This document shows, one piece after another, positions 1 through 18,071 of a stretch of DNA of 64,000 nt; position 1 is the first letter of the stretch, and each line of letters opens with the position of its first letter. The notes beneath the pieces are model-generated. The model was not told where the DNA came from and made no database searches. It was given only the letters and a program-made list of their open reading frames with translations. This stretch comes from Turneriella parva DSM 21527 (GTDB lineage: Bacteria > Spirochaetota > Leptospiria > Turneriellales > Turneriellaceae), in assembly GCF_000266885.1 (NCBI RefSeq), contig NC_018020.1, positions 1,488,001 to 1,552,000 on the forward strand, written 5' to 3'. The position numbers and the translations under genes were made by a program.

Positions 1-378
1 GTCTTCTTCGACCGTGCTGTGAAAAGTCAGCTTGGTGATCGCGCGGTCAATGATGCGCAGCCGCTGCGAAAAGTAGCGAATGATCTTCATCGCGATCGGC
101 GCGTTTTTTTGAATCAACACGCCAAATTGGTCACGCCCCACATTGATCATCGACGTGTTCGCAAGGCACTGTGCCGTCTCAATATGCGGGTGGCCACTCA
201 TCGAAGATACCACCCCGAAGAAGTCGCCAGGGTTAAGAATCAGGTTGGGTTCTTCGCCGGGTATCGGCATCTCGGCCGTAAGGCGTACTTTGCCCTGCCG
301 AACGATGTAAAAGCCCGGTGCGGCTTTGCCTTCGACAATTACAAAGGCATTTTGCTGAAAATTGGCGATCTGAAACAT
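1..378 (-). CDS. Cyclic nucleotide-binding domain protein (Crp-like), partial
   Basis: The reverse strand is open from an ATG at 378 to the window edge (126 codons, C-terminus missing). The translation begins MFQIANFQQNAFVIVEG and contains GFYIVRQGKVRLTAE, NPGDFFGVVSSMSGHPH and AQCLANTSM. This is the beta-roll and phosphate-binding cassette pattern (G-D-F-F-G) of cNMP-binding domains. A helix-like stretch (FSQRLRIIDRAITKL) follows, as in Crp-type regulators. Whether a DNA-binding domain follows cannot be seen. It is divergent from the next gene. Confidence 0.75.
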   Translation of the reverse strand, partial: MFQIANFQQNAFVIVEGKAAPGFYIVRQGKVRLTAEMPIPGEEPNLILNPGDFFGVVSSMSGHPHIETAQCLANTSMINVGRDQFGVLIQKNAPIAMKIIRYFSQRLRIIDRAITKLTFHSTVEED

Positions 379-485
379 ATGTCGGCGAGTTTATCCCTCT
401 TAATTATCGGCACATGCCTTGGCAAGGTGAAGAACAGATTAGGTGTTTTTGGTTTTCGGCATATGGTGGCGATTGCCGGTCGGCC

Positions 486-917
486 ATGCGAAGGGCCGGC
501 CTGCTCATTTTTATTGCTGCATTTCAGGTGCTCTGCGCCAAACCCTATTCACAGCGCATCAAACTCGCCGATGAGACGCTGGTGCAGGCCCGCGACCAGG
601 GTATACCCTATGAGGCTATGCTCGATGCAGCCTTAGACAAGGGGCCAGAAGCATTTGAGAGGTATATCCTACTGATGCGAAAACTCGACACATCGGGCGC
701 ATATTTTCATTTCTTTCATGTCTATGAAGCCGCCGAAATCGCAGGCGATGCGAAATTTGCCCCCGCGACCTCGAAGCTGAAAGCCGACGATGCCAAAATG
801 CTGGTGCAGGGGCTCGGAGAGGCGCATGGTTGGCTCAAAAGAAAGACGGCATTCGCGGCGCGTTTTCCCAAGGCGGCGAATCAGTTTCGCGCTTTGGGTA
901 TCAAGGTGGATTTCTGA
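486..917 (+). CDS. Small exported protein of unknown function
   Basis: About 143 residues from the ATG at 486. I chose this start because the N-terminus MRRAGLLIFIAAFQVLCAKP is a signal-peptide-like stretch; the open frame continues upstream to 318 without adding anything recognisable. The mature part is helical and charged, with no family I recognise. The 3' end overlaps the start of the following permease frame, depending on which permease start is used. Confidence 0.5.
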   Translation: MRRAGLLIFIAAFQVLCAKPYSQRIKLADETLVQARDQGIPYEAMLDAALDKGPEAFERYILLMRKLDTSGAYFHFFHVYEAAEIAGDAKFAPATSKLKADDAKMLVQGLGEAHGWLKRKTAFAARFPKAANQFRALGIKVDF

Positions 918-2293
918 CATTCACGAACCCTGCGGCACCTCGCAGGGCATTGGGGCTCTTCACCGCAATCAGTCTCGTTGCCGGCTGCATGATCGGCACG
1001 GGTGTTTTTCTGAAGCCCGCGATCATGGCGCAGCACGCCGGTAGCGTGGCGATCGTGCTTCTGGCTTGGCTCGTGGCGGGTTTGCTTTCATACGCGGGTG
1101 CACTCACGTACGCTGAACTCTGTTCGCGCATGCCCGAAGCAGGTGGCGAGTATGCGATCTTGCGCAATGTCTATGGCAGGTTTCCCGCTTACATGTATGG
1201 CTGGATGCGCTTCACCATCGGCGCACCGGGCAGCGCCGCTTCTTATGCAGTCGGCGCGGCAGCGTTTCTGCATGTGGTTGTGCCCTATTCGGCAATGGGC
1301 ATCAAGGTTTGGCAGATGGCCGTGGTATTCATCGCGCTCTTCACGATTATCAACAGCCTCACGATATTCGTGAGCTCTTCGGTGCAGGTGACGCTCACCG
1401 CAATCAAGATCATTAGCCTCAGCGTGCTCGTCGGCACGCTGTTTTTTCTCGCCCCCGAAGCGGCCCGTGATGCCGCGCCGGTAAAATGGCCTGGCATGGT
1501 GTCTTTTTCTGCCGCGCTCTTGGCGGCGCTCTGGGCCTATGACGGCTGGAACAACCTGCCGATGCTCGGTGGCGAAGTCAAGAATGCGCAGCGCAACCTG
1601 CCTATCGCTCTCGCCGTCGGTCTTGGCCTCGTGATCGTTGTCTATCTGCTGGTGAACCAGGCGTTCTTTCATGTTCTCACCTTTAACGAAGTGCTCGCCG
1701 CCAACCCTTCGGTGAAACCCGATGCCGAACCCGTTGCCACCGCTGCGATGCACAAGGTTATATCCGATGCGAGCGTGAAGGTCATCGCAGCAATGATGGT
1801 CGTGTCAGCGCTCGGCGCGATGAGCGGTTCGATTCTCGCGAGTGCGCGTGTGCCATATGCAATGGCGCATGACGGAGTCTTCTTCAAACCGCTCGGCCGT
1901 CTTTCGCCGGTGAATGCGATTCCGGTTGTGTCGACGATCACGCAGGGTTCAATCGCCGCGTTGCTCGCCGTCTCGGGCACTTTCGACGAACTCACCGATT
2001 CGGTTGTCTTTGCTTCGTATATATTCTATGGACTCACTGCAGGTGCGATCTTTAAGATCAGGGGTTTCAGAAAAACTGCTGCCGAGCCGGGCATATTCAG
2101 AACGCCGCTATATCCGATTTTGCCTTTGCTATTCTTGCTCTGCTCGGCCGGCTTCATTATCTATGCAGCGATTGCAATGCCATACCTCACGGCGATCGGC
2201 ATCGGCGTTATTCTGCTGGGCGTGCCGGGCTATTTCTGGTTCACGAAGAAGAAACCATCTTCAGCCCCACAATTGACGCAATCAGCGTCGTGA
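830..2293 (+). CDS. APC-superfamily amino acid permease
   Basis: An inner-membrane amino acid transporter of the APC family. The GxGIF-like signature appears as AGCMIGTGVFLKPAIM in the first membrane helix. About 12 hydrophobic segments follow, including ALWAYDGWNNLPMLGGEVKNAQRNLP, the conserved helix 6 to loop region of LAT/basic amino acid permeases. The start is uncertain. The ATG at 830 lies inside the preceding gene and adds about 40 non-homologous residues, while a TTG at 950 (LGLFTAISLVAG) would fit the family better. Substrate is not predictable from sequence. The 3' end overlaps the convergent SMR gene by about 50 bp. Confidence 0.85.
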   Translation: MAQKKDGIRGAFSQGGESVSRFGYQGGFLTFTNPAAPRRALGLFTAISLVAGCMIGTGVFLKPAIMAQHAGSVAIVLLAWLVAGLLSYAGALTYAELCSRMPEAGGEYAILRNVYGRFPAYMYGWMRFTIGAPGSAASYAVGAAAFLHVVVPYSAMGIKVWQMAVVFIALFTIINSLTIFVSSSVQVTLTAIKIISLSVLVGTLFFLAPEAARDAAPVKWPGMVSFSAALLAALWAYDGWNNLPMLGGEVKNAQRNLPIALAVGLGLVIVVYLLVNQAFFHVLTFNEVLAANPSVKPDAEPVATAAMHKVISDASVKVIAAMMVVSALGAMSGSILASARVPYAMAHDGVFFKPLGRLSPVNAIPVVSTITQGSIAALLAVSGTFDELTDSVVFASYIFYGLTAGAIFKIRGFRKTAAEPGIFRTPLYPILPLLFLLCSAGFIIYAAIAMPYLTAIGIGVILLGVPGYFWFTKKKPSSAPQLTQSAS

Positions 2294-2570
2294 TGAAAAA
2301 GACTCTCCAGAATGTCACTGGGTCTTTGAATACCAGAATGCCGACCACCACCGTGCCCACCGCGCCGATGCCTGTCCAGACTGCATAGGCGGTACCGATC
2401 GGCAGCGCTTCGACCGCTTTCATGAGCAGAAGCATGCTGAGGCTGAGCGCGGCAAAAAAACCGGCGTACCAGAGAGTTCTCTCGAAGCCCGCGGTTTCTT
2501 TCGCTTTCGCGAGGCATGCGGCGAATGCGACTTCGAAAAGGCCTGCGATGATTAAGGTGAGCCAGGGCAT
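2241..2570 (-). CDS. Small multidrug resistance (SMR) family transporter, SugE/EmrE-like
   Basis: About 109 residues from the ATG that gives MPWLTLIIAGLFEVAFAACL; six further upstream codons are open but look non-coding. There are four membrane segments and the membrane-embedded Glu of SMR proteins (GLFEVAFA). The motif AYAVWTGIGAVGTVVVGILVFKDP is typical of the family. SMR proteins are dimeric proton-coupled exporters of cations or guanidinium; this sequence does not decide which subtype. It is convergent with the amino acid permease. Confidence 0.87.
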   Translation of the reverse strand: MPWLTLIIAGLFEVAFAACLAKAKETAGFERTLWYAGFFAALSLSMLLLMKAVEALPIGTAYAVWTGIGAVGTVVVGILVFKDPVTFWRVFFITTLIASIVGLKMVSSS

Positions 2571-2758
2571 TCTTGGGTTTCTAACCAATTCACTTTCAGT
2601 GCGGGCACCACTTTTTTATGCCAGAGGTAACGCGAATCTGACGAACCAGCACATATTCAACCTGCTTTACGCCTTGAATCAGCATAAGGTGTCAGGCGTC
2701 AGACAGAGCATCTTGCAGGGTGCTCTGTGCAACATCTATCATGAGAGGAGTATCTAAA

Positions 2759-3364
2759 ATGAAAAGATTCAGCATCTTCTGCTTCTTACTGCCAACCGTA
2801 TTCACCTTCTCGGCATGCGTCACTTTTCTTGATCTTGAAAAAAAAGAGACAGCAAAAAACGAAACAAGCGTTTCAGCCAAAAAAAACCTGACGATCACCT
2901 ATGCGCAATACCAGCAGGTCGACTCTGAGAAGACCAAATCACCAGAGAAAGACAGACTCATCACTGAGCAGAGAATCGTCAAGATTTTGAACCGCAGCAA
3001 CCAGTTTACCGAGGTAAAGGTTGCAGAAAACGAAAATTCACCCGCAACCTCTGACCTCACGATGAAGTTTACAGTGGTTTCGAACGTGAACAACAAAATT
3101 GGCCCACTCAGAATTCTCTCTTTTCTGACGCTCGGTGTCGTGCCCATGCAGTTTAAACAAGAAACGAAACTCACGACCGAAGTTTTAGACAAAAGCGGCA
3201 AGCGGTTGAAATTGACAGAAAGCTCTTTTCAGTCTGATACCTGGATAGGCTGGCTCTTTCTGCCCCTCGCGCCATTCTTTTGGCCCGATTCTCAGGCAGA
3301 TAAGGCATTTGAGAACATGGTAGGCTCCACTCTTGCTGAAATGAAGAAAGAGAATCTTCTGTAA
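2759..3364 (+). CDS. Lipoprotein of unknown function
   Basis: The start at ATG 2759 is supported by a GAGAGGAG ribosome site just upstream. The N-terminus MKRFSIFCFLLPTVFTFSAC has a type II signal peptide with lipobox FSAC, so it is probably membrane-anchored. The roughly 180-residue mature part has a Lys-rich stretch, a hydrophobic patch (LRILSFLTLGVVPM) and a C-terminal hydrophobic patch (WIGWLFLPLAPFFWP). No family recognised. The next lipoprotein follows at once, so the pair is probably co-transcribed. Confidence 0.65.
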   Translation: MKRFSIFCFLLPTVFTFSACVTFLDLEKKETAKNETSVSAKKNLTITYAQYQQVDSEKTKSPEKDRLITEQRIVKILNRSNQFTEVKVAENENSPATSDLTMKFTVVSNVNNKIGPLRILSFLTLGVVPMQFKQETKLTTEVLDKSGKRLKLTESSFQSDTWIGWLFLPLAPFFWPDSQADKAFENMVGSTLAEMKKENLL

Positions 3365-3419
3365 TTTGGCAAGCGGCTTACATAATTCGTCGAAGCTAAA
3401 GGCACGGGTCATTCGGCCC

Positions 3420-3959
3420 GTGCGACAGCGAAAAATTCGATTCTTTGCACTGTGTACAATCTTGTCGTTGCTCACCGGTTGTTCGGCCATTAGCCGGTGG
3501 CTGCTCGTAAACCGTACCGATGAGACAGTACGCGTCACCATACAATTTGCCGATTCAGAATTTTCTCCCGAAGAAATACGGTTATACAAGATTCAATTTC
3601 TTCTCGACGACGATGTGGGCGGCATAGACTTCTTTACAGTTTTTGAAGACACGGCGGTGTCGAAGCCCGTAGAATTCGATAAGTTGCGCAAAACCTTCAT
3701 TTTTGACTTAGCCCAGAACGAATATGCAGATATTCTGCTGTCGAGTTTCGCCCCGGCAAACCGCGTATCTGTGCGAATTCAAGGTGAATCGGGCAGATAT
3801 GCAGAAATCTCTGGTACGGTCGCGCAGCCCACGAGCGCGTATATCAAACCATCTGATTTACTGATTACCCGGGGCACCTCGTGTACGCCGGTACGCAATG
3901 CTTATCGGTGTGTGACGAAGATAAAATCGGATATGCTCGCGGCGCAGCCGAACAAATAA
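3420..3959 (+). CDS. Lipoprotein of unknown function
   Basis: The frame opens at TTG 3366, but a GTG at 3420 gives a compact lipoprotein signal (RQRKIRFFALCTILSLLTGC, lipobox LTGC) and is preferred. The mature domain is beta-rich (NRTDETVRVTIQFADSEF, RVSVRIQGESGRYAEISG) with no recognised family. It lies directly downstream of another lipoprotein gene on the same strand, suggesting an envelope operon of two. Confidence 0.55.
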   Translation: MRQRKIRFFALCTILSLLTGCSAISRWLLVNRTDETVRVTIQFADSEFSPEEIRLYKIQFLLDDDVGGIDFFTVFEDTAVSKPVEFDKLRKTFIFDLAQNEYADILLSSFAPANRVSVRIQGESGRYAEISGTVAQPTSAYIKPSDLLITRGTSCTPVRNAYRCVTKIKSDMLAAQPNK

Positions 3960-4123
3960 CGCGGACTCAGCTCACTACTGAATATCGCGGCGTTTGCAGA
4001 CTGTTTATCCTGGGAAACATTGCTTCAGAACGATGCTTTTACAGCCACCTGTCGCTAAAATATGCGCTCCCGCGACGCTCATTTGCTGAAAATCTTGCAC
4101 GCTGGCGAAAAGCCTCTTCTACA

Positions 4124-4591
4124 TCATTCGGGCAACGCCTGAAATTCGGCAACGAATAATGTATGGGTATTATCAAAGGTATTGTATAGGCCATGCATGC
4201 AGAAAAGCAAAACATTCTTACCGATGAGTTGTTCTTTCTCCAGGTATGGCAACAGTTGTTTCTGAAAAATCAGACGAAAATTTACGCCATCTGCGCGAAT
4301 CATGAGCTCGTGGGTATAGGCTGAAGCATGTTGCGGATCTTGCCACACAAAGTGGTTATAGTGTTTAATCGCCCATGCGCCCTTTTTATCGACACGGGTC
4401 GGCTTTGCGCTAATGGGTAATACCAGACGAAACTTATTCGAAAATGAGCCTACGCCCGGGCCATCTTGCTTTTCATAATTCTCAGAGATGTTCTGAAAGA
4501 ATTTCATTTCGACGGGCGCGTAAGAATCGTAGTTGAATGCGAATGCGCCCGTGGCGGTAAGTGTGGTGATGAGTAGCGAGTATTTTAGCAT
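4124..4591 (-). CDS. Exported protein of unknown function (has a decayed paralogue nearby)
   Basis: 155 residues starting MLKYSLLITTLTATGAFAF, a cleavable signal peptide ending near AFA. The mature part includes ENYEKQDGPGVGSFSNKF, RLVLPISAKPTRV and HYNHFVWQDPQHAS. It has no family I recognise and is probably periplasmic or secreted. A truncated, stop-containing copy of the first half lies at 5340-5576 on the same strand, beyond the PagL-like gene, so the gene was duplicated locally. Confidence 0.6.
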   Translation of the reverse strand: MLKYSLLITTLTATGAFAFNYDSYAPVEMKFFQNISENYEKQDGPGVGSFSNKFRLVLPISAKPTRVDKKGAWAIKHYNHFVWQDPQHASAYTHELMIRADGVNFRLIFQKQLLPYLEKEQLIGKNVLLFCMHGLYNTFDNTHTLFVAEFQALPE

Positions 4592-4730
4592 GGCGTACCT
4601 CTATTTGCTTTTGGGAAAAGTGAAATTTATCGTATGCCAGACAACGCAGACCTGATAATTTCTATGTGTAAAGCTATTTTGCTGCTTCAATTCGGCCAAT
4701 AGCTGTTGCATATGGGTCTACGGAGAATAG

Positions 4731-5270
4731 TCAAAAATACCGAACGAGACCCAGGCCAGCACCCATCGCCTCGTAAGAGGGGTTAAACGGGCCTAAGCCC
4801 TGACCATTTGAAACATGCATCCAATGACTAGAAAGGCGTAAGTGCGTGTCAGTGCTGAGTTCAACCCCGACAGTGGGGCCAATGCGACCCATGAAATTGT
4901 ATATGTCGCCCCCTGCGGGAAAATGGTTGCTGTAGATTATGAATCCCCCCAAAGTTTCAATGCCAAAGCGCCAGCCTTTGATATCGAATGGCTCAAAACG
5001 CAATAAGCCGCTCGCGCCCACCCCTGTGGCGCTGCTACCGTAAGTGGCGCTTCGAAATGTGCCATCACTGATTGAACCTTCTAGCCGAATAATTTCGCCC
5101 CAGGCCCGGGTCACCGTGACACCGCCACCAACCACCAGCCAGCCGTTACGGGTTACATTTCTGCCGAATATGACGTCGGCCGTGACCGTGTAAATCGGGC
5201 GGTCAGTCTTTGTCGGCGAGAGGTATTGAACGCTCGGCTGATAGAAGCGCCCGCCGCCAGCAGAAAACAC
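4731..5270 (-). CDS. PagL-like lipid A 3-O-deacylase / acyloxyacyl hydrolase
   Basis: Outer-membrane beta-barrel with aromatic and Gly alternation and a terminal Phe (GAGLGLVRYF). Near the C-terminus it carries SSHWMHVSNGQG followed by NPSYEAMG. The H-x-S-N pair and the following Asn-Pro...Glu match the catalytic His/Ser/Glu arrangement of PagL lipid A deacylases. The only in-frame start is GTG 5270 and it leaves no signal peptide. A good signal peptide (MAIVTYALASLLPLCFL) is encoded immediately upstream in another frame, so a frameshift near 5275-5300 is likely. Confidence 0.6.
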   Translation of the reverse strand: MFSAGGGRFYQPSVQYLSPTKTDRPIYTVTADVIFGRNVTRNGWLVVGGGVTVTRAWGEIIRLEGSISDGTFRSATYGSSATGVGASGLLRFEPFDIKGWRFGIETLGGFIIYSNHFPAGGDIYNFMGRIGPTVGVELSTDTHLRLSSHWMHVSNGQGLGPFNPSYEAMGAGLGLVRYF

Positions 5271-5339
5271 AACGGCAGAAGGGAGGCTAAGGCATAGGTC
5301 ACTATCGCCATAATTGGCAGCGCTGACCGAAATTTCGAC

Positions 5340-5576
5340 TCAGGGGTTCCAGAGTGTGGCGTGTGGTTTTGATTCGATGGGGCTAAATCGATGCTGCTTT
5401 CGTACGCAAGCGGGGACATGCGCCACTGGGGCTGGTTTCGCGGTAACGGGCAATAGAATGCTATACTCATTCGATGAACGGCTGACCTCTCGGCCACATT
5501 GCTTTGCATAATTCTGGGTCATGTTCTAAAGGAGGCGAATTTCGGCGGGTACGTAATCATATTTGAAAGCAAAGGC
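5340..5576 (-). pseudogene. Decayed, truncated duplicate of the exported protein at 4124-4591
   Basis: Read on the minus strand from 5576 the translation is AFAFKYDYVPAEIRLL, stop, NMTQNYAKQCGREVSRSSNEY then SILLPVTAKP. It matches AFAFNYDSYAPVEMKFF-Q-NISENYEKQ...LVLPISAKP of the intact gene. The intact CAG (Gln) is a TAG here, and similarity ends near a TGA at about 5340. I see no other coding content between 5271 and 5669. Confidence 0.7.
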
Positions 5577-5669
5577 CCACCAAAAGTAGGTACCCTAAGC
5601 ACGTATTGCAGGTGTATTCGTCGCCGGCGTATTGTCCAAATTTGGCTGGCTAACGTGCGGTTATCTACC

Positions 5670-6335
5670 TCAAATTATACCTTCATATCTATCATAATTC
5701 CATCTCAAGTTCGCTTTTTGGGCCATCTCGTAATCTTGGATTAGGCGCTTTATGGCCCCGCGATGAGCTGCACCGATATAAAAGACCGCTGTCTCAAATG
5801 GTTTCTGTTCAAAGTAGCGATATATGTTAGCCACCATGGTCGATTCACGTTTCTTCATGTGCTCGTTCCAGGATTTGTGTATCTCCCAGAGCTCAACCTC
5901 ATTAATTATTTGCAAAGCTTGTTCGATCGCATTTTCCAAGTTTCTGTTTACTTTTTCGAAGTGAGCGCTGTTAAGATAACCGAAACCATACATCCGCTTA
6001 TCCACCGCGTCGGTATCTATGATGGAGCTATAGCCAAAGCTAACCGCCTCTACTCGTTCATGCATCTGCCGGTGCAGTTTGAAAAATGATTCTGGCGGCA
6101 AAACATCTAAGTCCACTGGAATATGCTCGACTGGATACTTTTGGATATAGAGATTAATGGCCTCGGTTTCTAGCTGTCTTCTTGTTTTATCAAGATAATG
6201 CGCATCAAAATCTGATGGCATAAGCTCTTCAAAAATTACCTCGGGTCTGATCTTCTCCAGAATCTGGTAGAAGCTTTGGATGTTGCAGGCTCCGGCTTCC
6301 CTGTGCATGGTGCCGATGAGTGTAATATTGTGCAT
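5670..6335 (-). CDS. TraB/TIKI-like (GumN/PrgY-type) domain protein
   Basis: The start is taken at the internal ATG giving MHNITLIGTMHREAG; the open frame extends seven codons further. The N-terminal IGT-x-H motif, the conserved acidic pair in PEVIFEELMPSDF, and a C-terminal FYIGAAHRGAIKRLIQDY (G-x-x-H) are the landmarks of the TraB/Tiki/PrgY superfamily. These are putative metal-dependent peptidases or erythromycin-esterase-like hydrolases. No signal peptide or membrane segment is visible, so it is probably cytosolic. It sits at the edge of the AT-rich defence island; a link is not shown. Confidence 0.6.
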   Translation of the reverse strand: MHNITLIGTMHREAGACNIQSFYQILEKIRPEVIFEELMPSDFDAHYLDKTRRQLETEAINLYIQKYPVEHIPVDLDVLPPESFFKLHRQMHERVEAVSFGYSSIIDTDAVDKRMYGFGYLNSAHFEKVNRNLENAIEQALQIINEVELWEIHKSWNEHMKKRESTMVANIYRYFEQKPFETAVFYIGAAHRGAIKRLIQDYEMAQKANLRWNYDRYEGII

Positions 6336-6716
6336 ACTAATAGGTTGTCTGCCCAATGGCGGGCAAAGAGTCGGTTATCGAACGCTTAGCGAGGTAAACC
6401 TCGTAAAATCTATCCGCAAAGCCATTTTCTGCGCTCTCAACGCCGACTTTGGTTGAGCCCGTCTCACGCCTATGTCTTGATCTCGCCGAATATAACCCTT
6501 GCCAACAGTTCTTAACGGCACTCAATAGAGGAGCCGGTGTAACATATCGCAGGCGACCTCAACCAGTGATGCGAATCACTAGGAGCCCCAGCCCTAGTCA
6601 CGACAATATTCAGAGCACGTTTTGGCCTCCCAAAACGTACGCAGCCTTAAGATATTGTCAGTTTTGTATGTTCAGAGTTTAGCGCACCAAGAGGTCCAGA
6701 ATTTAGCGAAATAGGA
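6336..6716. other. Intergenic stretch, no gene seen
   Basis: No open frame here looks coding on either strand; short frames at 6337-6525 and 6449-6682 lack family features. Base composition shifts to AT-rich towards 6720. The stretch may be the boundary of the acquired island. Confidence 0.4.
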
Positions 6717-9152
6717 TTACTTGCATTCGGAAATATCATTTACCTTTCCCGTGATAAACGGAAGGTACTTGGGGGCCAGTATGTTGAGTTTAATTATGCG
6801 CCAAAGTTGCGAGTTGATTATTACTCGATTGTTTCCAAAGTATCTTCTAATCGGGCTTGCTGAATTTTTCATCAACACGTCTAAGCCAATGATTGATTCT
6901 GCATTTTCGTCATAGCATTGAATGAACTCTTTTTCGATAAGAATTTTCAGCAGATGGTCGCTACGCGACTCTGCGCACTTAGCTTTTTTCGCGATGTTTC
7001 TAAACTTTGCTAAACCAATGAGGGTACCCTCATATGGGGTTAGTTCATAAAGAAGATCGTTCATTTCCGAACAGTCAGCAATGGTTTCGTCCACCAAATT
7101 ATCTCGGACAAAATACATATACTCTTTTATGGCGTACACGACATCCGCGTCCAAAATACTTCTATGACCATTGTCGATTGCTTTTACGAAAAGTGTTCGA
7201 ATGAAGTAAATAATATCACGTGGTTTTTTGTAAATTATGTTGAATATCTGATTATAAGGGTGATCGCCATTTCCAAAGTGGAAGTATTTTGACCAAATTT
7301 CAAATGGGTCGTGTCCCTCAGGCAAATTCAATGTGAATGCAAATCTCTTCTCGATTATTGTTTTCAATAGATTTGGGTAAAGCCCCCAATTAATCTCGTG
7401 ACAGAGCGTCCTGAATTTCCCTTTTTCATTTGAATATTTTCGAAGATATTCAAGTATGTCGGTTCTCAAAAAGATGATGTTCTTAATCTCAAGCTTCATT
7501 TCACCTGGCAAATTTAGTTCATCTCTGACCTTGTTGCTCATGTCGATCAATGAATTTATCATTTCAGCTTGATAGTCGAACCTATGATCCGTATCCCAAG
7601 TTCTATCTAAATTATCTGCAATAATTATAATCCGATAATACTTTGATTTTTTCGATTTGAAATATTGGTTCAAGATCAACACCAGTGGACTCAGGAACGT
7701 CCTGTGTAAGGTTTCTAATGAATTTGGTTCGATTGATCTATGAGAGGTGTGCCCGCCCCGCAGTACGTGTTTCAGCAAGGCCAAAAAGCTAAGATTTACA
7801 ATATCTTTGTTTTTCTTGGCAAAATCCAAAAGGTTTAGTTCTTCCGTACTGTTTTGGTCTGTTGTCTTTGCTTGCGTCTTATTCGATAAGAATATGAGCA
7901 GTCGTGAGAAAATGATCAGTTTCCATACCGTATAGAAGAAAGATTTCCTAGAGGCTTCTTTAAACAATTCAGCTATGGAGATGTTTTCTTCAAGTTCGTC
8001 CGGATCAGGCTTAATATTAACAATTAGATTATTGTCATCTTCTTTTAGGTGATTGTGGAGAATGATGTTGATGGCTGTCTTTCCGGAGCCTTTCGGGCCA
8101 GAAATAATTACTTTCGACATGTTGATTGCCGCGTTATAGGCCGCATTCTCTGCAAAATAATAGATAAGCTTATCTTGTTCGTTTTCTGCGACGTCATCAC
8201 CTATGCCCAGCTTTATCAAATTAAGTTCATGCTCATGTTCTTGAGGTATTATTTGAGTTGTACGTTCGGCGCTCGGCTGTAATAGTTGATTTAGCCACGG
8301 ATCGACATCTAGAATTAGGTCATTGGAGTCTGTATATTGATAGAGAATATCATGGTAATCCAATGGCGCTTTGAAAATGGCCGGGGCAATTAGTTTTACA
8401 TTGCGATCTAACCCGCAAGCAACACCGGCCAAAAAAGAATTTGTGGCATTCTCAGCACGGTGATTTTCTATCCGATCATTCAGGAAATGAATTAAGACCC
8501 CCTTTGACTTTATTATATTTTGAAAATAGAACTGAATTGGACGGTACGAAATCTCACTTTTGTTATCAGTGGTGATGTTTAAATTCTTTTCCGTACGATA
8601 TAATTCGACATATTCCCAGAGATCAATAAGATATTGACTTTTCAACTTTGTCTGGACATAGAAAATGTCATTCGTACATGGCGCAATTAGTGTAGAGTCG
8701 GTGTATTGATTCAGTAGGTTATCGTTGTAATTTTTTTGTTTGATGTCTTCTGCTATTTCTTTCCCGGTCATTGCCGTTGAGTAGCGTATGTCTTTAAAGA
8801 TCGAATCCTTATAGAGTTTTTCCGCGCCTTCAATGCTTTTGTTAAGCAAGATCAACAGTTTTTTATTTCGCGCCAACGCATACCCGAGTTCAAACAATAC
8901 ATTATGGTTAAAATACGTTACATCACAAACAAATATCGAGCATTCATTAATGTTTGCCAAGACTTCTTTGGTGATTGAATTTGTTCGTCGAAATTCTTCC
9001 CAACTAACGGCTTTATATTTTGGATGATAGGCATTGATAGTCTGAATAGCCTTCTTAATTCCCCCGATATTGGGATCTGATTGAGTTCCTTGTTGCCCTT
9101 GGTAAGCAAAGAAAATTAATTCCTTTTGGCTCGATAATTGATCAGAACTCAT
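6717..9152 (-). CDS. P-loop NTPase (Sll1717-like) with N-terminal TIR/deoxyribosyltransferase-like domains; putative defence protein
   Basis: About 811 residues from ATG 9152; a TTG 33 bp upstream is an alternative. The N-terminal domain has ELIFFAYQG near the start and CDVTYFNHNVLFELGYALA followed by RNKKLLILL. This is the strand, N-x-x-x-E-L-G-Y helix and strand pattern shared by nucleoside deoxyribosyltransferase-like and TIR-like NAD/nucleotide-cleaving folds. A second related domain follows (NATNSFLAGVACGLDRNVKL). The NTPase has Walker A GPKGSGKT near residue 355 and Walker B RIIIIADNLDR near 508; the D-N-L-D-R form is seen in Sll1717-type ATPases. A helical C-terminus follows. The gene is visibly AT-richer than its surroundings, suggesting transfer. 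Defence role inferred from architecture and neighbours. Confidence 0.6.
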   Translation of the reverse strand: MSSDQLSSQKELIFFAYQGQQGTQSDPNIGGIKKAIQTINAYHPKYKAVSWEEFRRTNSITKEVLANINECSIFVCDVTYFNHNVLFELGYALARNKKLLILLNKSIEGAEKLYKDSIFKDIRYSTAMTGKEIAEDIKQKNYNDNLLNQYTDSTLIAPCTNDIFYVQTKLKSQYLIDLWEYVELYRTEKNLNITTDNKSEISYRPIQFYFQNIIKSKGVLIHFLNDRIENHRAENATNSFLAGVACGLDRNVKLIAPAIFKAPLDYHDILYQYTDSNDLILDVDPWLNQLLQPSAERTTQIIPQEHEHELNLIKLGIGDDVAENEQDKLIYYFAENAAYNAAINMSKVIISGPKGSGKTAINIILHNHLKEDDNNLIVNIKPDPDELEENISIAELFKEASRKSFFYTVWKLIIFSRLLIFLSNKTQAKTTDQNSTEELNLLDFAKKNKDIVNLSFLALLKHVLRGGHTSHRSIEPNSLETLHRTFLSPLVLILNQYFKSKKSKYYRIIIIADNLDRTWDTDHRFDYQAEMINSLIDMSNKVRDELNLPGEMKLEIKNIIFLRTDILEYLRKYSNEKGKFRTLCHEINWGLYPNLLKTIIEKRFAFTLNLPEGHDPFEIWSKYFHFGNGDHPYNQIFNIIYKKPRDIIYFIRTLFVKAIDNGHRSILDADVVYAIKEYMYFVRDNLVDETIADCSEMNDLLYELTPYEGTLIGLAKFRNIAKKAKCAESRSDHLLKILIEKEFIQCYDENAESIIGLDVLMKNSASPIRRYFGNNRVIINSQLWRIIKLNILAPKYLPFITGKVNDISECK

Positions 9153-9185
9153 AATGATCAGCTGTGCATGCGTACCAACGCTCAA

Positions 9186-9834
9186 TTAATTTATTGCGCA
9201 AAGAATCCGCCACGAACAGCGCAATTGAAGCCGCTCAAGTTGCGGCGTAAAGTCCATTCTTGCAGCCAGTAAGATTAGTAGGTGAATTGAGTAAATGAGC
9301 TTGGTTGTGGCTTTCCGACATCGTCTGTAACCTTTGCGCTTCGTTTCCCAACTTGATAAGCCGATGCAAGTCGCGTCGGTTTGCTAACAGCTAGCGGGTG
9401 CTTGTCCCTAAATTTCTAGCCTTTGCGTCGGGCTTTCATCGTCGATTTTTCTGATTGTGATGCGAAAATAGAATCACTCAACCGCCGCCATTCCCAATTC
9501 TTGTTCGAAAAATTTTGCCAAGTTTATCGTTAAGGAAATATCCAGATCAAATAAGGATTGCAAATACGGCCGATTCAAACTTTAGCGCAATTCGAAGGTC
9601 ACCAATAAATAAGTAACTGAACGCACCTGGCATTTGCACCTTGGCGCTGAAAGACGCGCCAGCGGCGAGCGCCTATTGACTTCTTATACGACAATCGGTT
9701 TTACCGCCTCTAGATTTGCCGGGGATTCCTGAGCTACAACCGTCAAAAAAACCAGAGAACACATACCACCACCCAAGATTTCAGCTGCGTGGGAATTAGA
9801 ACGCTGTTGTAGTTGTTTTCAGTGGTTTGGCGGC
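9186..9834. other. 650-bp AT-rich stretch without a recognisable gene
   Basis: No open frame of convincing length or content on either strand. It separates the NTPase gene from the SLATT gene, both on the minus strand, and could hold the NTPase promoter or remnants of a lost gene. Confidence 0.4.
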
Positions 9835-10692
9835 TCAGTTATCCTTGCGCGCTGCCCATTGAGTATGCTCCCGGGAGAATGCGCTTTCAGCATCGCTTAC
9901 AAACAACGAAAATTGTTCTTGGGTCTTAACGTCATAAATTGCACCACGAATTAGGGTTATCTCGTTTGCGGTCAAATTATAAGCTGAAGTTAGATCTCTG
10001 TATCTTTGAATCTGAAGCCAAGACAAGATCGCACCAGCAATTGTTGGGGCAGTGTCGATAATCAAGGTATGCAGGGACGGTATTATCAAATAAAAAAAGA
10101 AGCAAACTATAAGAATCAAATGATTTAAGAAAAACAAGCCATACCAGAATTTTGAACCCCGACGGTTCAATCTCGCCTTTTCTGAATACCAATTCAATTG
10201 CTCTTTTATGCGGTTATTCAAGTAAAATGACTTCCTATGAGCTAAAGTCGCCGACCGAAGTGTCTTCATGGATTCCGAAATAACTGCATGTTGATCGAGT
10301 TCTGTTAGCATTTGTTGAGATACATTCTGATTTTGTTTCAATAGATCGCCAAGATGCCGGGTAAACAATACTTGTGCATTATTATTGTCAAAAGGCTCTG
10401 CGCGCATTACGAACCGCCATGTCATCGTTTTTACAGATTCGGCCAATGCCCTTGCGGTGTACCATACAGTATTCTTGTCATCGAAAGTCAGGAAGATGTT
10501 CAAGACGAAAGAAATTAGGATCAAAATTGCCGAAATAATCTTTCCAACCGGGATCTCTTTGAACATTGAAAAAATGATGCAAAAGGCCACAAGGCACACA
10601 GTGTGCCATTTGAAAATGCGTTTGTATAAAGCCTGAGTGCGATTTGATAGCTTATCCGCTGAGGAGTATAAGCTCGGATACTCTAATGCCAT
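9835..10692 (-). CDS. SLATT / DUF4231-type membrane protein, putative pore-forming defence effector
   Basis: 285 residues. Two membrane helices lie near residues 31-70 and a second pair near 182-232. After the first pair comes DKNTVWYTARALAESVKTMTW, the conserved W-x-x-A-R-A-x-A-E-S-x-K motif of SLATT (SMODS- and SLOG-associating two-TM effector) domains, and the second pair follows a long helical region. Family members are predicted membrane-disrupting effectors of nucleotide-signalling defence systems. Before IS481 insertion its ATG lay 3 nt after the stop of the TIR gene, so the two formed one operon. The element now separates it from its promoter unless the insertion supplies one. Confidence 0.7.
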   Translation of the reverse strand: MALEYPSLYSSADKLSNRTQALYKRIFKWHTVCLVAFCIIFSMFKEIPVGKIISAILILISFVLNIFLTFDDKNTVWYTARALAESVKTMTWRFVMRAEPFDNNNAQVLFTRHLGDLLKQNQNVSQQMLTELDQHAVISESMKTLRSATLAHRKSFYLNNRIKEQLNWYSEKARLNRRGSKFWYGLFFLNHLILIVCFFFYLIIPSLHTLIIDTAPTIAGAILSWLQIQRYRDLTSAYNLTANEITLIRGAIYDVKTQEQFSLFVSDAESAFSREHTQWAARKDN

Positions 10693-10693
10693 A

Positions 10694-10700
10694 CATTAGG
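10694..10700. repeat. Target-site duplication of the IS481 element, left copy
   Basis: CATTAGG directly abuts the element's TGTAATAG end; the identical heptamer abuts the right end at 11836-11842. Confidence 0.85.
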
Positions 10701-11835
10701 TGTAATAGTTTTTACTTTATCTGACACTCTCTTAACAAAAAGGAGTGTTTATGACGACAGAACAGAAAATTATCAAGAACAAGGTTGGTCTGCTGAAACT
10801 GGCAGAGCAGCTGGGCAGCGTATCGAAAGCTTGCAAGGTTTTCGGTTACTCAAGAGACAGTTTCTACCGGTTTAAGGAGCTTTACGACAAGGGTGGCGAG
10901 CTCGCATTGCAGGAGATCAGCCGCAGGAAGCCTTTGCTGAAAAATCGTGTAGCTCCAGAGGTCGAGGAAGCGGTACGGGAAATTGCATTTCAATACCCCG
11001 CGTACGGTCAGGTTCGGGCGTCCAACGAGTTGCGCAAGATAGGTATCATCATCTCCCCTTTTGGCGTGCGCGGCGTTTGGCTGCGCCATGATCTTGCGAC
11101 GTTTAAAAAACGGCTGAAATACCTTGAAGCGCGAATGGCTCAGGAAAAGGGGATCTTTACCGAGGCACAATTGGTTGCGCTCGAACGCGCAAAAGATGAG
11201 AAGGAAAGTCACGGTGAAATTGAAACGGAGCACCCTGGTTATTTGGGGTCACAAGACACGTTTTACGTGGGAAATATGAAGGGTGTGGGTAAAATTTATC
11301 AGCAGACCTTCATCGACACGTATTCGAAAGTCGCTTTTGCGAAACTCTATGATCGCAAGAATTCTCTGGTTTCAGCCGATATGCTTAACGACAGAGTCAT
11401 CCCGTTTTTTGACGAGCATGAGATTCCGCTGTTGCGCGTTCTGACCGATCGTGGCAGCGAGTACTGTGGCAACCGGGAAGAGCACGATTATCAGCTGTAT
11501 CTGGCCTTGGAGAATATCGACCACACAAAAACCAAGGCCAAGAGCCCGCAGACGAACGGCATTTGTGAGCGCTTTCACCGGACTATATTGAATGAGTTTT
11601 ACAATGTTGCATTCAGAAAGAAGGTTTACACTTCTTTGGAGCAATTGCAGGCAGACCTTGATGAGTGGATTTACGATTACAACACGCAGCGCACTCATCA
11701 GGGGAAATATTGCTTCGGCAAAACGCCTCTGGCAACATTCAAAGACTCGCTCAGTATAGCGAAAGACAAAATGCTGGATTTGAAATTACAGACAGCATGA
11801 AAATGGGTGTGTCAGGTCAAGTTCAGACTTTTACA
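10701..11835 (+). mobile_element. IS481-family insertion sequence, 1135 bp, apparently complete
   Basis: Its ends read inward as TGTAATAGTTTTTACTTT and TGTAAAAGTCTGAACTTG, both running on into CTGACAC: imperfect terminal inverted repeats matching at about 21 of 27 positions. They begin with TGT as usual for IS481. It contains a single full-length DDE transposase and is flanked by 7-bp direct repeats (CATTAGG). It lies exactly between the TIR and SLATT genes. Confidence 0.88.
10751..11800 (+). CDS. IS481-family transposase (DDE integrase)
   Basis: About 349 residues. Start chosen at ATG 10751 behind AAAAAGGAG. An N-terminal helix-turn-helix (GSVSKACKVFGYSRDSFYRFKE) is followed by an integrase core with the catalytic triad visible as GSQDTFYVG, LTDRGSEYCG and SPQTNGICERFHRTI. 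The length is normal for the family and no frameshift is seen, so it may be active. It is transcribed against the flanking defence genes. Confidence 0.92.
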   Translation: MTTEQKIIKNKVGLLKLAEQLGSVSKACKVFGYSRDSFYRFKELYDKGGELALQEISRRKPLLKNRVAPEVEEAVREIAFQYPAYGQVRASNELRKIGIIISPFGVRGVWLRHDLATFKKRLKYLEARMAQEKGIFTEAQLVALERAKDEKESHGEIETEHPGYLGSQDTFYVGNMKGVGKIYQQTFIDTYSKVAFAKLYDRKNSLVSADMLNDRVIPFFDEHEIPLLRVLTDRGSEYCGNREEHDYQLYLALENIDHTKTKAKSPQTNGICERFHRTILNEFYNVAFRKKVYTSLEQLQADLDEWIYDYNTQRTHQGKYCFGKTPLATFKDSLSIAKDKMLDLKLQTA

Positions 11836-11842
11836 CATTAGG
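11836..11842. repeat. Target-site duplication of the IS481 element, right copy
   Basis: CATTAGG follows the right end (CTTTTACA). It overlaps the stop codon of the TIR gene, whose TAA lies at 11840-11838 on the minus strand. Confidence 0.85.
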
Positions 11843-12245
11843 CGAGTCTGCGAATCGCGTCCACGATACTATCAGTATTCCAACCCACAATTTCGTTTGC
11901 AATCTGAGAGATTTGACGTGGCATATTTGTTGAACCCCAAGGCTGAATCGCAAGTATCGGTTTATGCAGTGAGTATGCACAATCCATCTCATACTGAATC
12001 CATTCGCTGTAGTTCACGTACAAACCGGAAATGATCAAGACTACTTGGACAGGCCGAATTTGAGCTTGTATCTGATCTGTCAGTTGCGCGCTGGTCATTT
12101 CGGCAAAAGCATCATGTTCTGGCACGCTGTAGTTTGCATAAATAAAATAGGGGGCCCGATCTAGTAACTCAACCAAACGGTAATATTCTTCATTGTAACG
12201 CCAAGCATGGCTGATGAATATTCTATAGTTACGGAGTTCCGGCAT
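11838..12245 (-). CDS. ThsB-type TIR-like protein (MTH538/DUF1863 family), putative defence sensor
   Basis: 135 residues, essentially one domain. The N-terminal RNYRIFISHAWRYNEEYYRL, then LLDRAPYFIYANYSVPEHDAF, VVLIISGLYVNYSEWIQYEM and a terminal VGWNTDSIVDAIRRL match the MTH538-like TIR family that includes Thoeris ThsB. ThsB proteins sense phage infection and make an NAD-derived cyclic signal that activates a partner effector. No SIR2-SLOG ThsA is present; the downstream partner is a SLATT membrane protein. The pair was a tight operon before the IS insertion. Confidence 0.8.
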   Translation of the reverse strand: MPELRNYRIFISHAWRYNEEYYRLVELLDRAPYFIYANYSVPEHDAFAEMTSAQLTDQIQAQIRPVQVVLIISGLYVNYSEWIQYEMDCAYSLHKPILAIQPWGSTNMPRQISQIANEIVGWNTDSIVDAIRRLA

Positions 12246-12300
12246 CGGTTAATTTTACCCGTTCGCCAAGTATGTAAAGTGCATTACCACCGCCGCCCCC

Positions 12301-13419
12301 CTACCTCAACTCAAACACCAACTCCTCTTCTACTGTGTCCCCCACAGCCGTCGCTCGTGCCGATGCGTCTGTATAGATATCCACCACAAAGAAGCCGTTC
12401 TTTTCCCACGCGAGCAGCGTCTGGTCGTTGTGCGTGACCGCGTCGCGTTTGCTGCCCGAGCCTGAGATGAGATGGTATTTCACGGGGCCGGTGCCAGAGA
12501 AGAGCTGCAGGTTGTGGTCGTGGCCGGCGGCGTAGAGAAAGACCTCGCGGTTTTTGAGAATGGCCGCGATTGAGTTCAGGTATTTGCGGTATTTCGAGTG
12601 CGAAATATCCGTTGAAGTGATCCATCCCCATTGGCGGGTGAACACGACGAGCGAGGCCACCACGGGCAACGGAAAATATTTGTTATAGTTATAGACCGGG
12701 AAAATGTGGTGCGGCCAGTCGAAGAAGCCGCCGTGCGAACCTTCGCTGACGAGCGGGTGGTGCGCGGCGAGAATAATGCGCGTGCCCGGTTTGATGTTCT
12801 TCTGCAGGTAGTCGCTCGCGAAGCTCTCGAACTGGCGTTTGTGTTTAATCGCGCAATCGCTCGCCGGGGCCTTCGCTGCGGCGGCCCCGTCGTCGGGCAA
12901 ATCGATCACTGCCTGCGAGTCGATGAAGAGCATCACGCTGCCTTTGCCCACCGGCTCGGCGGCAATGCCCGCGCAGCCGTTTTGCGGCGCAAAGTGCGCA
13001 CCGCGATCGGTCACAAAGCGCTGCTGCGCCAGAATTCTTTTGCGTCCGTTGCTGCGCGAACTGTTCCAGTCGTGGTTACCGGGAATAAAAATCGTCTTGC
13101 GCGCCTTTTTCGCGGCGTTAATCTGCGCGCTTAAGCGTGCGGCATAGAGTTCGTAAGAGCCGTCGTTTTCGCTCGCGTCGGGCAGGCCATATTCATAGAC
13201 ATTGTCGCCCAGAAACACGACGAGTGCATCTTTCGTGAGGTAGCGATCAAGTTTTGCCCAGACTGCATCACCCGGTGTCGCCTTGCCCGCATCACCCACA
13301 AAGATGATGCGCTGCTCGATAGCTGAGCTTTGAGGATTCACCACGCGAGTGCGGGTATAAGGCTGCGTGTGGCTGCACGCAATTGTTACGAGGGCTAAAC
13401 TTATCAGAAGGGCTTTCAT
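12301..13419 (-). CDS. Metallophosphoesterase, probable lipoprotein
   Basis: 372 residues. The N-terminus MKALLISLALVTIACSH is a lipoprotein signal with lipobox TIAC. Calcineurin-like metal-binding motifs appear in order: IIFVGDAGK (GDxG), VVFLGDNVYEYG (GDN), IFIPGNHDWN (GNHD), ILAAHHPLVSEG and YAAGHDHNLQLF (GHDH). This resembles the purple acid phosphatase or tartrate-resistant type of the superfamily. It is probably an envelope-facing phosphatase. Substrate unknown. Confidence 0.85.
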   Translation of the reverse strand: MKALLISLALVTIACSHTQPYTRTRVVNPQSSAIEQRIIFVGDAGKATPGDAVWAKLDRYLTKDALVVFLGDNVYEYGLPDASENDGSYELYAARLSAQINAAKKARKTIFIPGNHDWNSSRSNGRKRILAQQRFVTDRGAHFAPQNGCAGIAAEPVGKGSVMLFIDSQAVIDLPDDGAAAAKAPASDCAIKHKRQFESFASDYLQKNIKPGTRIILAAHHPLVSEGSHGGFFDWPHHIFPVYNYNKYFPLPVVASLVVFTRQWGWITSTDISHSKYRKYLNSIAAILKNREVFLYAAGHDHNLQLFSGTGPVKYHLISGSGSKRDAVTHNDQTLLAWEKNGFFVVDIYTDASARATAVGDTVEEELVFELR

Positions 13420-13472
13420 GTTTCTTTCTGCCTCTTTTCGCAGAGCGATTGCCGCATCAGCGGAAACCGCGC

Positions 13473-14150
13473 CTATTTGCGTGCTTCAGCAATTGCCTTT
13501 TCGATGTCTTTCGCCATCTGCACGAGCACCTGCGCACGAAACTGGTCTAGGTTGGCGGGGCGAAGGCTACCACTGTCGGCAGTAAACGTGCGCACAGGGT
13601 ATTCATTCTGTACCGTCAGAATTGTCTGCGAATCGATATTGGATATCAGGCGCACGACCACCTGAAACTGGTAAGTGTCTTGTTTATCTTTTTTGAACCA
13701 TTTGTCGCCGCGTTTCAGAAAGACTCCGTTGCCTTTGTCGAGCGTCGCGTCATATTTGCCGGGGCCATCTGCAGGCATCTCGTGCTCGAGAGTCTCTGTC
13801 TTCACTTCGTGCGCAGTCACTTCGCCCAGCATAGTGGCTTCGGCGCCCAGAAACGTGCCGGCTTCGAGAACTTTGTTTTCAATGAGGCCTGTCTGCGCCA
13901 GTTCTTTCTCTTTCAGAATCTTGTCGATTTTCTCTCGTTCGACAACCTTAAAACCCGAAGCGACCATCGCGCCGCGAAAGGTCTCTGTGCTTTCGCGCGT
14001 TGCTTTGGCGTCGGCAACCGTCGAGGTGAACGGCATCACAGCGATGGTCTTGACCTGCGCCAGCGCCTCTTTGCGGATTGAGATTTTTGAAGTCGAGCAA
14101 TTTGTAAGGGCAATGGCGCACGCCATTACCACGAATATTTTTTTCATCAT
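13473..14150 (-). CDS. CsgG/GNA1162-like lipoprotein
   Basis: Start chosen at the Met giving MMKKIFVVMACAIALTNCS (lipobox LTNC); the frame is open further upstream. The mature protein has KTIAVMPFTSTVADAKATRE, GFKVVEREKIDKILKEKELA and LGAEATMLGEVT, the early-domain pattern of CsgG/HfaB-like lipoproteins. Those assemble or support outer-membrane secretion channels. No curli-type neighbours are present, so the substrate is unknown. Confidence 0.65.
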   Translation of the reverse strand: MMKKIFVVMACAIALTNCSTSKISIRKEALAQVKTIAVMPFTSTVADAKATRESTETFRGAMVASGFKVVEREKIDKILKEKELAQTGLIENKVLEAGTFLGAEATMLGEVTAHEVKTETLEHEMPADGPGKYDATLDKGNGVFLKRGDKWFKKDKQDTYQFQVVVRLISNIDSQTILTVQNEYPVRTFTADSGSLRPANLDQFRAQVLVQMAKDIEKAIAEARK

Positions 14151-14226
14151 AGCGTTATATTGACCGTGCATCTGCCGAGTCAACGTATTTCTTGAGCATC
14201 AACGTTCGCACCTGAGGTGCGAATGC

Positions 14227-17322: not shown

Positions 17323-17332
17323 GCGGTAGAAA

Positions 17333-17695: not shown

Positions 17696-17915
17696 CTTCT
17701 TCGTTGTCCCATTCGGCGAAACCTGTTTCGGCATATTTATACCAGGCGTCGTCTTCGGGCGTATACTTGCGCAGCACGAGCTCATTGCCGTGTGCGACGA
17801 ATAACACAGCGTCGCCGTCGTGCATGTCGGCAATCTGCCGCATCGCCGAGGGTACGGTAATCTGTGCTTTAGAAGAGATGTGTGTCAGGGTTGCGGGCAT
17901 CGAGAGAATTGGCAT
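17673..17915 (-). CDS. AbrB/MazE-type antitoxin
   Basis: 80 residues. The N-terminal swapped-hairpin domain (HISSKAQITVPSAMRQIADM then HDGDAVLFVAHGNELVLRK) is a SpoVT/AbrB fold and an acidic C-terminal tail (EDDAWYKYAETGFAEWDNEEDE) would wrap the toxin. The ATG at 17915 has AAGGAG upstream. It overlaps the toxin gene. A 16-bp inverted repeat upstream probably serves autoregulation. Confidence 0.85.
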   Translation of the reverse strand: MPILSMPATLTHISSKAQITVPSAMRQIADMHDGDAVLFVAHGNELVLRKYTPEDDAWYKYAETGFAEWDNEEDEVYNSL

Positions 17916-17925
17916 GAGAAAAGCT

Positions 17926-17981: not shown

Positions 17982-17984
17982 AAA

Positions 17985-18018: not shown

Positions 18019-18071
18019 TTTTCCAGTCCGAAAAGACTCGACATGGCAATTTGATCACGCTAAAACGAATC

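What the first reader, a model, noticed from the sequence alone, without database searches (positions are those of the whole stretch)
6717..9152. AT-rich NTPase with two N-terminal TIR/deoxyribosyltransferase-like domains
The protein joins two nucleotide-cleaving-like folds (N-x-x-x-E-L-G-Y motifs) to a P-loop NTPase with an Sll1717-type Walker B. This sensor-ATPase-effector layout resembles STAND-like defence proteins. It neighbours the TIR-SLATT pair and differs in base composition from core genes.
Basis: partly seen in the sequence, partly recalled or inferred. Interest (0 to 1): 0.65.

Follow-up and report, generated by a model that had tools for sequence, protein, structure and literature searches.

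The report
ATPase-gated nucleotide-cleaving defence protein
An AT-rich gene in the spirochaete Turneriella parva belongs to a widespread, mobile, untested protein family that joins a likely nucleotide-cleaving (TIR-like) enzyme domain, a dead copy of it, and an NLR/ORC-type ATPase, and it probably kills or stalls virus-infected bacterial cells.

Summary
The 811-aa gene at 6717-9152 (-) is real and intact. The C-terminal half is a strong member of the NCBIfam Sll1717 P-loop ATPase family (E=2e-55); its predicted fold is an ORC/Cdc6/STAND-type AAA+ core plus winged helix. The N-terminal 300 residues form two TIR/NDT-class Rossmann modules (AlphaFold pLDDT 92.6). I collected 72 other full-length relatives with the same layout, patchily spread over many phyla, plasmids and prophage-like contigs. 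Their neighbourhoods are rich in defence genes, and all three SLATT_3 genes in 33 relative-bearing genomes lie next to the relative. Module 1 aligns best with DNPH1, but two of DNPH1's three active-site residues are replaced (Tyr to Phe, Asp to Ile/Val). Of the classes compared, that pattern fits TIR NADases best. Most likely mechanism: ATP-gated oligomerisation switches on module 1, which destroys NAD+ or a related nucleotide and aborts infection (inferred, untested). I found no description of this architecture in the papers searched; the components and logic (TIR-NLR, Swarozyc, Retron-Eco1) are known.

The parts
6717..9152 (-). 811-aa protein: TIR/NDT-like module 1, degenerate module 2, Sll1717-type ATPase, winged-helix C-terminus
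   Evidence: ORF; NF047389 E=2e-55; AlphaFold pLDDT 86.4
8727..9131 (-). Module 1 (residues 8-142): putative nucleotide/NAD+ N-glycosidase with Glu88
   Evidence: Profile match to DNPH1/Rcl E=6e-6; structure match Z 9.6; E88 and N84 in 73/73
8889..8891 (-). Codon of Glu88, putative catalytic glutamate
   Evidence: Invariant in 73/73; aligns with the E of the Y-E-L-G motif of DNPH1, taken to be its catalytic Glu from established knowledge
8277..8684 (-). Module 2 (residues 157-292): same fold class, no catalytic Glu; candidate ligand-binding or structural module
   Evidence: Structure match to MilB Z 10.8 and TIRs; module 1 vs 2 profile alignment E=3e-4, HHalign probability 17.6%; position 241 never Glu
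7083..8243 (-). ATPase core (residues 304-690)
   Evidence: NF047389; ORC/Cdc6/TnsC/STAND structural matches Z 10.5-13
8076..8099 (-). Walker A GPKGSGKT (352-359; family consensus GRKGSGKT)
   Evidence: G352, K354, G355, G357, K358 in 73/73
7605..7634 (-). Walker B strand and DNLD (507-516)
   Evidence: D513 and D516 in 73/73
7458..7466 (-). R-x-D (563-565), candidate sensor-1/STAND arginine
   Evidence: R563 and D565 in 73/73; role inferred
7218..7226 (-). K/R-P-R (643-645), candidate sensor-2
   Evidence: P644 and R645 in 73/73; role inferred
6783..7064 (-). C-terminal winged-helix-like region (697-790)
   Evidence: Secondary structure; ORC/Cdc6 alignments extend to residue 792
9835..10692 (-). 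SLATT_3 + SLATT_1 membrane effector gene, recurrent neighbour of this family
   Evidence: Pfam E=6.5e-32 and 2.3e-36
11838..12245 (-). ThsB-type TIR gene, recurrent neighbour of this family
   Evidence: PF08937 E=3.6e-12; PADLOC ThsB
10701..11835 (+). IS481-family element (transposase 10745-11800) inserted at the TIR/SLATT junction
   Evidence: NF033577 E=3e-83; imperfect inverted ends and a 7-bp CATTAGG duplication read
10694..10700 (.). Left copy of the 7-bp target duplication CATTAGG
   Evidence: Sequence
11836..11842 (.). Right copy of the 7-bp target duplication CATTAGG
   Evidence: Sequence

Best explanation
It is a single-gene, horizontally spread anti-phage (abortive-infection) protein with NLR-like logic. 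In the resting cell the ORC/STAND-type ATPase holds the protein inactive. An infection cue, not identified (candidates: a nucleotide bound by degenerate module 2, or DNA or a phage protein bound by the ATPase, its helical insertion or the winged helix), drives ATP-dependent oligomerisation. That brings the N-terminal modules together and activates module 1, whose Glu88 cleaves the N-glycosidic bond of a nucleotide, most likely NAD+, so that the infected cell stops supporting the phage. Shown here: architecture, fold class, conservation of Glu88 and of the ATPase motifs, loss of Glu in module 2, defence-rich context, patchy distribution. Inferred: enzyme activity, NAD+ as substrate, oligomerisation, trigger, defence itself.
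For: E88 and N84 invariant in 73/73, D77 and N82 71/73. Module 1 profile matches DNPH1/Rcl at E=6e-6, fold Z 9.6 at 2.2 A; NDT Pfam model hits 46 of 64 relatives. The position of DNPH1 Tyr24 is Phe 64/73 or Leu 8/73 and that of Asp80 is Ile/Val 72/73; PMC11204291 reports that NADase TIRs usually have Phe/Ala there, while NDT/DNPH1 have Tyr. ATPase is ORC/Cdc6/STAND fold with fully conserved Walker motifs. Neighbours of relatives match 165, 84 and 16 PADLOC families per ~94 proteins, against 6 for 92 control proteins from the same genomes. SLATT_3 occurs 3 times in 33 genomes carrying the relative and is always adjacent; 5 of 10 ThsB_TIR genes in 21 such genomes lie within about 8 kb. Plasmid and prophage-like carriage. 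A distant relative of the ATPase, DS41_1, is named an anti-phage protein (E=1.1e-7), and PMC13092281 lists DS-41 among validated systems.
Against: No activity or phage data for any member of this architecture. The best sequence matches of module 1 are deoxynucleotide enzymes, not NADases. Several loci are in non-defence surroundings, e.g. Ensifer L013 among catabolic genes. No repeat sensor is present, unlike canonical STAND/NLR proteins. The PADLOC comparison counts matched families, which inflates genes with many models; it does not count proteins.
Confidence: 0.55

Rival explanations
1. Module 1 is a deoxynucleotide N-hydrolase (DNPH1/NDT type), and the protein defends by destroying (d)NMPs or modified phage nucleotides rather than NAD+.
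For: Best sequence matches are DNPH1/Rcl, then NDTs; Pfam NDT in 46/64 relatives; DNPH1 fold at 2.2 A.
Against: Two of the three DNPH1 active-site residues are absent: the Tyr24 position is Phe/Leu and the Asp80 position Ile/Val.
Confidence: 0.2
2. The N-terminal pair is a nucleotide sensor without catalysis, and the output is ATPase- or DNA-based, as in ORC/Cdc6 or TnsC.
For: ATPase and winged helix resemble ORC/Cdc6 and TnsC; stand-alone Sll1717 ATPases exist without N-terminal modules.
Against: E88 is 100% conserved across very divergent relatives, unusual for a pure binding module; module 2 shows what loss of catalysis looks like in the same proteins.
Confidence: 0.15
3. It is a functional third component of the adjacent TIR-SLATT system: the TIR makes a signal that both SLATT and module 2 read.
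For: All 3 SLATT_3 genes in 33 relative-bearing genomes are adjacent; TIR-SLATT neighbours occur also in L105, with divergent SLATT proteins (31-36% to the window's).
Against: Most of the 73 relatives have no TIR-SLATT nearby; orientation and order differ between loci; sharing a defence island explains the association as well.
Confidence: 0.12
4. It serves maintenance or competition of its mobile carriers rather than phage defence.
For: Frequent carriage on plasmids and in prophage-like contigs.
Against: Chromosomal members in restriction-modification, DISARM, NucC and Thoeris-type surroundings.
Confidence: 0.12

Closest known systems
NCBIfam NF047389, P-loop ATPase Sll1717 family
   Same: The C-terminal half is a clear member (E=2e-55, 188.8 bits against cutoff 75).
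   Different: The NCBIfam model covers the ATPase only; many members are stand-alone or carry other extensions. No functional paper naming Sll1717 was found in the held library.
DS-41 (DefensePredictor validated anti-phage system; NF053860 DS41_1)
   Same: Distantly related ATPase region (E=1.1e-7, residues 322-438); DS-41 is named among validated systems (PMC13092281).
   Different: Far below the family cutoff (31 against 370 bits); the profile is 448 positions long and matched only over the ATPase region, so no N-terminal TIR/NDT pair is indicated.
Swarozyc (DUF4062 TIR-like NADase) and TEP1/NWD1-type STAND proteins
   Same: TIR/NDT-class NADase domain; in TEP1/NWD1 it is N-terminal to a STAND ATPase (PMC13174449). 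In Rhodococcus L008 a DUF4062-STAND gene lies next to a relative.
   Different: No DUF4062 match here; the ATPase family differs; here there are two tandem modules, the second without Glu.
Plant TIR-NLRs such as RPP1
   Same: Top Foldseek hit of the whole model; TIR-like domain ahead of a STAND-type ATPase.
   Different: TM-score 0.19, no leucine-rich repeats, a second degenerate module, no sequence homology shown.
Retron-Eco1 NDT-like effector
   Same: Known phage-defence use of an NDT-like domain; reported to hydrolyse NAD+ (title of Carabias et al. 2024, cited in PMC12548924; the paper itself was not available).
   Different: There it is a separate effector held by a retron; here it is fused to an ATPase, with no reverse transcriptase gene noted beside the window locus.
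DNPH1/Rcl and nucleoside 2-deoxyribosyltransferases
   Same: Closest fold and sequence to module 1.
   Different: The active-site Tyr and Asp are not conserved.

Membership tests
NF047389 Sll1717 ATPase | Whole-protein score over the curated cutoff | tested here: met
   188.8 bits against 75
DNPH1/NDT enzymes | Fold class | tested here: met
   Z 9.6, 2.2 A over 118 residues
DNPH1/NDT enzymes | Catalytic Glu in the E-L-G motif | tested here: met
   E88 73/73, aligned
DNPH1/NDT enzymes | Active-site Tyr (human Tyr24) | tested here: not met
   Phe 64/73, Leu 8/73; register from the aligned ranges, not residue-level superposition
DNPH1/NDT enzymes | Active-site Asp (human Asp80) | tested here: not met
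   Ile/Val in 72/73
NDT Pfam PF05014 | Score over the gathering cutoff | tested here: not met
   20.3 against 28.8 bits for the window protein
TIR-domain NADases | Flavodoxin-like fold with Glu in the helix after the third strand | tested here: met
   E88 in the helix after strand 73-77; TIR matches at Z 8.5-10 are mostly to module 2
TIR-domain NADases | NAD+ cleavage | not testable with these tools
   Needs an enzyme assay
STAND/NLR proteins | STAND-type AAA+ ATPase with winged helix | tested here: met
   ORC/Cdc6, Sso1545, CED-4, NRC4 and RPP1 among structural matches at Z 10.5-13
STAND/NLR proteins | C-terminal repeat sensor | tested here: not met
   The protein ends after the winged-helix region at 811; no repeats
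Thoeris | ThsB TIR plus ThsA (SIR2-SLOG or TM-macro) | tested here: not met
   A ThsB-like TIR is present, but no SIR2, SLOG or macro domain was matched in the genes tested here
Anti-phage defence system | Protection against phage | not testable with these tools
   Context only:

The most novel reading that the evidence does not exclude
A tandem TIR-fold pair in which the second, dead copy is the receptor for a small nucleotide signal (for example one made by the neighbouring ThsB-type TIR) and, through an ORC/STAND ATPase ring, switches on the first, live copy: an NLR-like protein whose sensor is a pseudo-TIR rather than a repeat domain, linking nucleotide signalling to ATP-gated assembly.
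Probability: 0.12. Interest if true: 0.78.

Novelty: new variant of a known kind. Interest (0 to 1): 0.52.

Why it matters
It marks out a widespread protein family, annotated mostly as hypothetical in the records read, as a likely single-gene immune system and gives it testable residues (E88, K358, N235). If true, it adds an ATPase class (Sll1717) and an arrangement (live plus dead TIR-like module in one chain) to the bacterial counterparts of TIR-NLR immunity, and would suggest a role for the stand-alone Sll1717 ATPases found on enterobacterial plasmids.

Tried and rejected
Single-sequence search of genome contigs found no relatives; the alignment-based search did. phmmer against PDB with the single sequence found nothing. 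Phage records: no match. E. coli genomes at DNA level, queried with the Brenneria relative: none. Rfam: nothing in 1-20000. tRNA-anchored island: no tRNA in the window. Strict TIR membership rejected as the label for module 1: TIR_2 hit only 2 of 64 and CAP12-PCTIR_TIR 4 of 64 relatives. DNPH1/NDT membership rejected on active-site residues. BFVD fold search gave no informative match. A conserved operon partner was sought and not found; the commonest neighbour cluster (5 loci) is a resolvase/recombinase.

Full report
What was checked. The ORF at 6717-9152 on the minus strand is intact, 811 aa from ATG 9152, with an in-frame TTG at 9185. The gene is single copy and AT-rich: GC 37.6%, with SLATT at 40.7% and TIR at 44.1%, against 52-57% for larger genes checked elsewhere in the window.

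The ATPase. Residues 317-746 match NCBIfam NF047389, P-loop ATPase Sll1717 family, at E=2e-55, 188.8 bits against a cutoff of 75. The AlphaFold model made from 64 sequences has mean pLDDT 86.4. VIA-align places residues about 302-792 with Cdc6/ORC (Z 13.0), TnsC (12.6), archaeal STAND-like ATPases such as Sso1545 (11.9) and plant or animal NLR/apoptosome proteins (RPP1, NRC4, Dark, CED-4; Z 10.6-11.5). The top Foldseek hit of the whole chain is the plant TIR-NLR RPP1 (E=9e-6), but TM-score is only 0.19, so it supports a shared domain order rather than close structural identity. Walker A (G352, K354, G355, G357, K358), D513 and D516 of Walker B, R563/D565 and P644/R645 are invariant in 73 sequences. 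There is no C-terminal repeat domain.

The N-terminal half. Predicted alone from 64 sequences it reaches pLDDT 92.6 and pTM 0.91: two Rossmann modules, about 8-142 and 157-292. Module 1 aligns with human DNPH1 (Z 9.6, 2.2 A, 118 residues); module 2 with the CMP N-glycosidase MilB (Z 10.8, 3.0 A, 126 residues), DNPH1 and TIR domains (Z 8.9-10.1). By sequence, the family profile finds DNPH1/Rcl at E=6e-6, and Pfam Nuc_deoxyrib_tr hits 46 of 64 relatives. Module 1 carries D77-x-T-x-x-N82-x-N84-V-x-F/Y-E88-x-G-Y/F-A; E88 and N84 are 73/73. Module 2 keeps N235 (70/73), G243 (73/73), P263 and D265, but the position equivalent to E88 is I/V/L/A/T/F/W/M and never Glu. A profile-profile alignment of the two modules supports that register with a pairwise E of 3e-4, although HHalign's probability is low, 17.6%.

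Which chemistry. DNPH1 and NDT use a Tyr next to the catalytic Glu, whereas NADase TIR domains usually have Phe or Ala there (PMC11204291, section 11). The structural alignments to DNPH1 start at a constant offset of 10 residues in human numbering (8-18, 9-19, 10-20), which puts F14 on Tyr24; this position is Phe in 64, Leu in 8 and a gap in 1 of 73. The DNPH1 Asp80, identifiable in the alignments because several PDB entries carry it as Ala or Asn, falls on residue 64, which is Ile/Val in 72 of 73. Module 1 therefore retains the Glu but not the Tyr and Asp. I read this as closer to TIR-type NAD+ cleavage than to deoxynucleotide hydrolysis; it is an inference from residue equivalences, the Tyr register resting on aligned ranges, not on a residue-level superposition or an assay.

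Distribution. Full-length or near full-length relatives came from plasmids, genome contigs, IMG/VR contigs and spirochaete genomes: 72 distinct full-length sequences besides the window's. They span Pseudomonadota, Bacteroidota, Acidobacteriota, Planctomycetota, Spirochaetota, Cyanobacteriota and others. The T. parva protein groups with Planctomycetota, Melainabacteria, Margulisiibacteriota and two other spirochaete sequences, nearest relative 38% identical (quick tree). Only 5 of 393 genomes drawn from the window's phylum matched at E<=1e-20, and none of the listed genus- or family-level genomes did. This is a patchy distribution compatible with horizontal transfer; trees were not tested formally for transfer.

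Context. Neighbours (three genes each side, 120-899 aa) of the relatives, scanned against PADLOC at E<=1e-10, matched 165, 84 and 16 families in sets of 95, 94 and 94 proteins, including type I and III restriction-modification, DISARM DrmB/C/D, NucC, ThsB, DUF4297 and HerA. A control set of 92 proteins picked the same way at arbitrary positions (contig 1, 30-45 kb) of 18 relative-bearing genomes matched 6 families, several of them housekeeping look-alikes. The measure counts families, not proteins, so it shows direction rather than size. Specific link: SLATT_3 was found in 1 of 296 genomes of the window's phylum, namely this one, and in 2 of 32 genomes carrying relatives; converting coordinates, both are the genes next to the relative in L076 and L080. 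ThsB_TIR occurs 10 times in 21 genomes, 5 of them within about 8 kb of the relative. With roughly 16 kb of neighbourhood in about 4.3 Mb, three of three SLATT genes would be near the family by chance with probability of order 5e-8. This shows non-random placement; it does not separate functional coupling from shared defence islands. In L105 a TIR-SLATT pair also follows the relative, with TPR-S, QueC, an OGG-type glycosylase and a TIR-TGT fusion nearby. SLATT proteins of the other three loci are only 31-36% identical to the window's, so the pairing recurred with divergent cassettes. L080 and L105 relatives are sisters in the tree, so these are about three independent lineages.

An IS481 element at 10701-11835 lies between SLATT and TIR, flanked by CATTAGG at 10694-10700 and 11836-11842. 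Reading across the duplication, the TIR stop would lie 3 nt before the SLATT start, as in Novosphingobium L076. The insertion separates an operon but leaves both reading frames intact.

Literature. No held paper contains 'Sll1717'. DS-41, whose component NF053860 is a distant relative of the ATPase, is among the validated systems of DefensePredictor (PMC13092281). Swarozyc establishes a TIR/NDT-like DUF4062 NADase in phage defence, and TEP1/NWD1 place that domain N-terminal to a STAND ATPase (PMC13174449). Retron-Eco1 uses an NDT-like effector (PMC12405507). The present layout was not found described in what could be searched; most subscription papers and all supplements were out of reach.

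Verdict. A real, uncharacterised, widely spread protein family, very probably part of bacterial immunity and probably an ATP-gated nucleotide-destroying executioner. The kind is known (NLR/STAND-like with TIR-class effector); the combination, the degenerate second module and the ATPase class make it a new variant.

Noticed in passing
window 10694-11842: IS481-family element inserted exactly between the TIR and SLATT genes, with a 7-bp CATTAGG duplication; both genes stay intact but their operon is split.
   Followed up: partly
L105:10570-16435: Prophage-like contig with a dense conflict island after the relative: TPR-S protein with an NDT-like N-terminus, ThsB-type TIR, SLATT, another TIR, QueC, OGG-type glycosylase and a TIR-TGT fusion; a similar island is in Brenneria L080.
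   Followed up: partly
L131:820-2916 and other plasmid hits: Sll1717 ATPases without the N-terminal modules are common on enterobacterial plasmids (matches in 185-215 plasmid records); the E. coli one read here has about 220 extra C-terminal residues of unknown role.
   Followed up: partly
L008:9971-12364, L021, L061, L066, L088: Several relatives are split into two ORFs near the start or between modules, suggesting frequent inactivation or sequencing errors.
   Followed up: no
L012 and L130 (NZ_AP023258.1): One Mesorhizobium plasmid carries two paralogues of the family about 100 kb apart, from different branches.
   Followed up: no
L008:8915-16393: Rhodococcus plasmid: the relative is flanked by a TIR gene and a DUF4062-STAND-TPR gene (Swarozyc-like).
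   Followed up: partly
window 5670-6356: AT-richer ORF (43% GC) next to the gene with only a weak TraB/GumN-like Pfam hit (E=0.19); it may mark the other edge of the acquired island.
   Followed up: no
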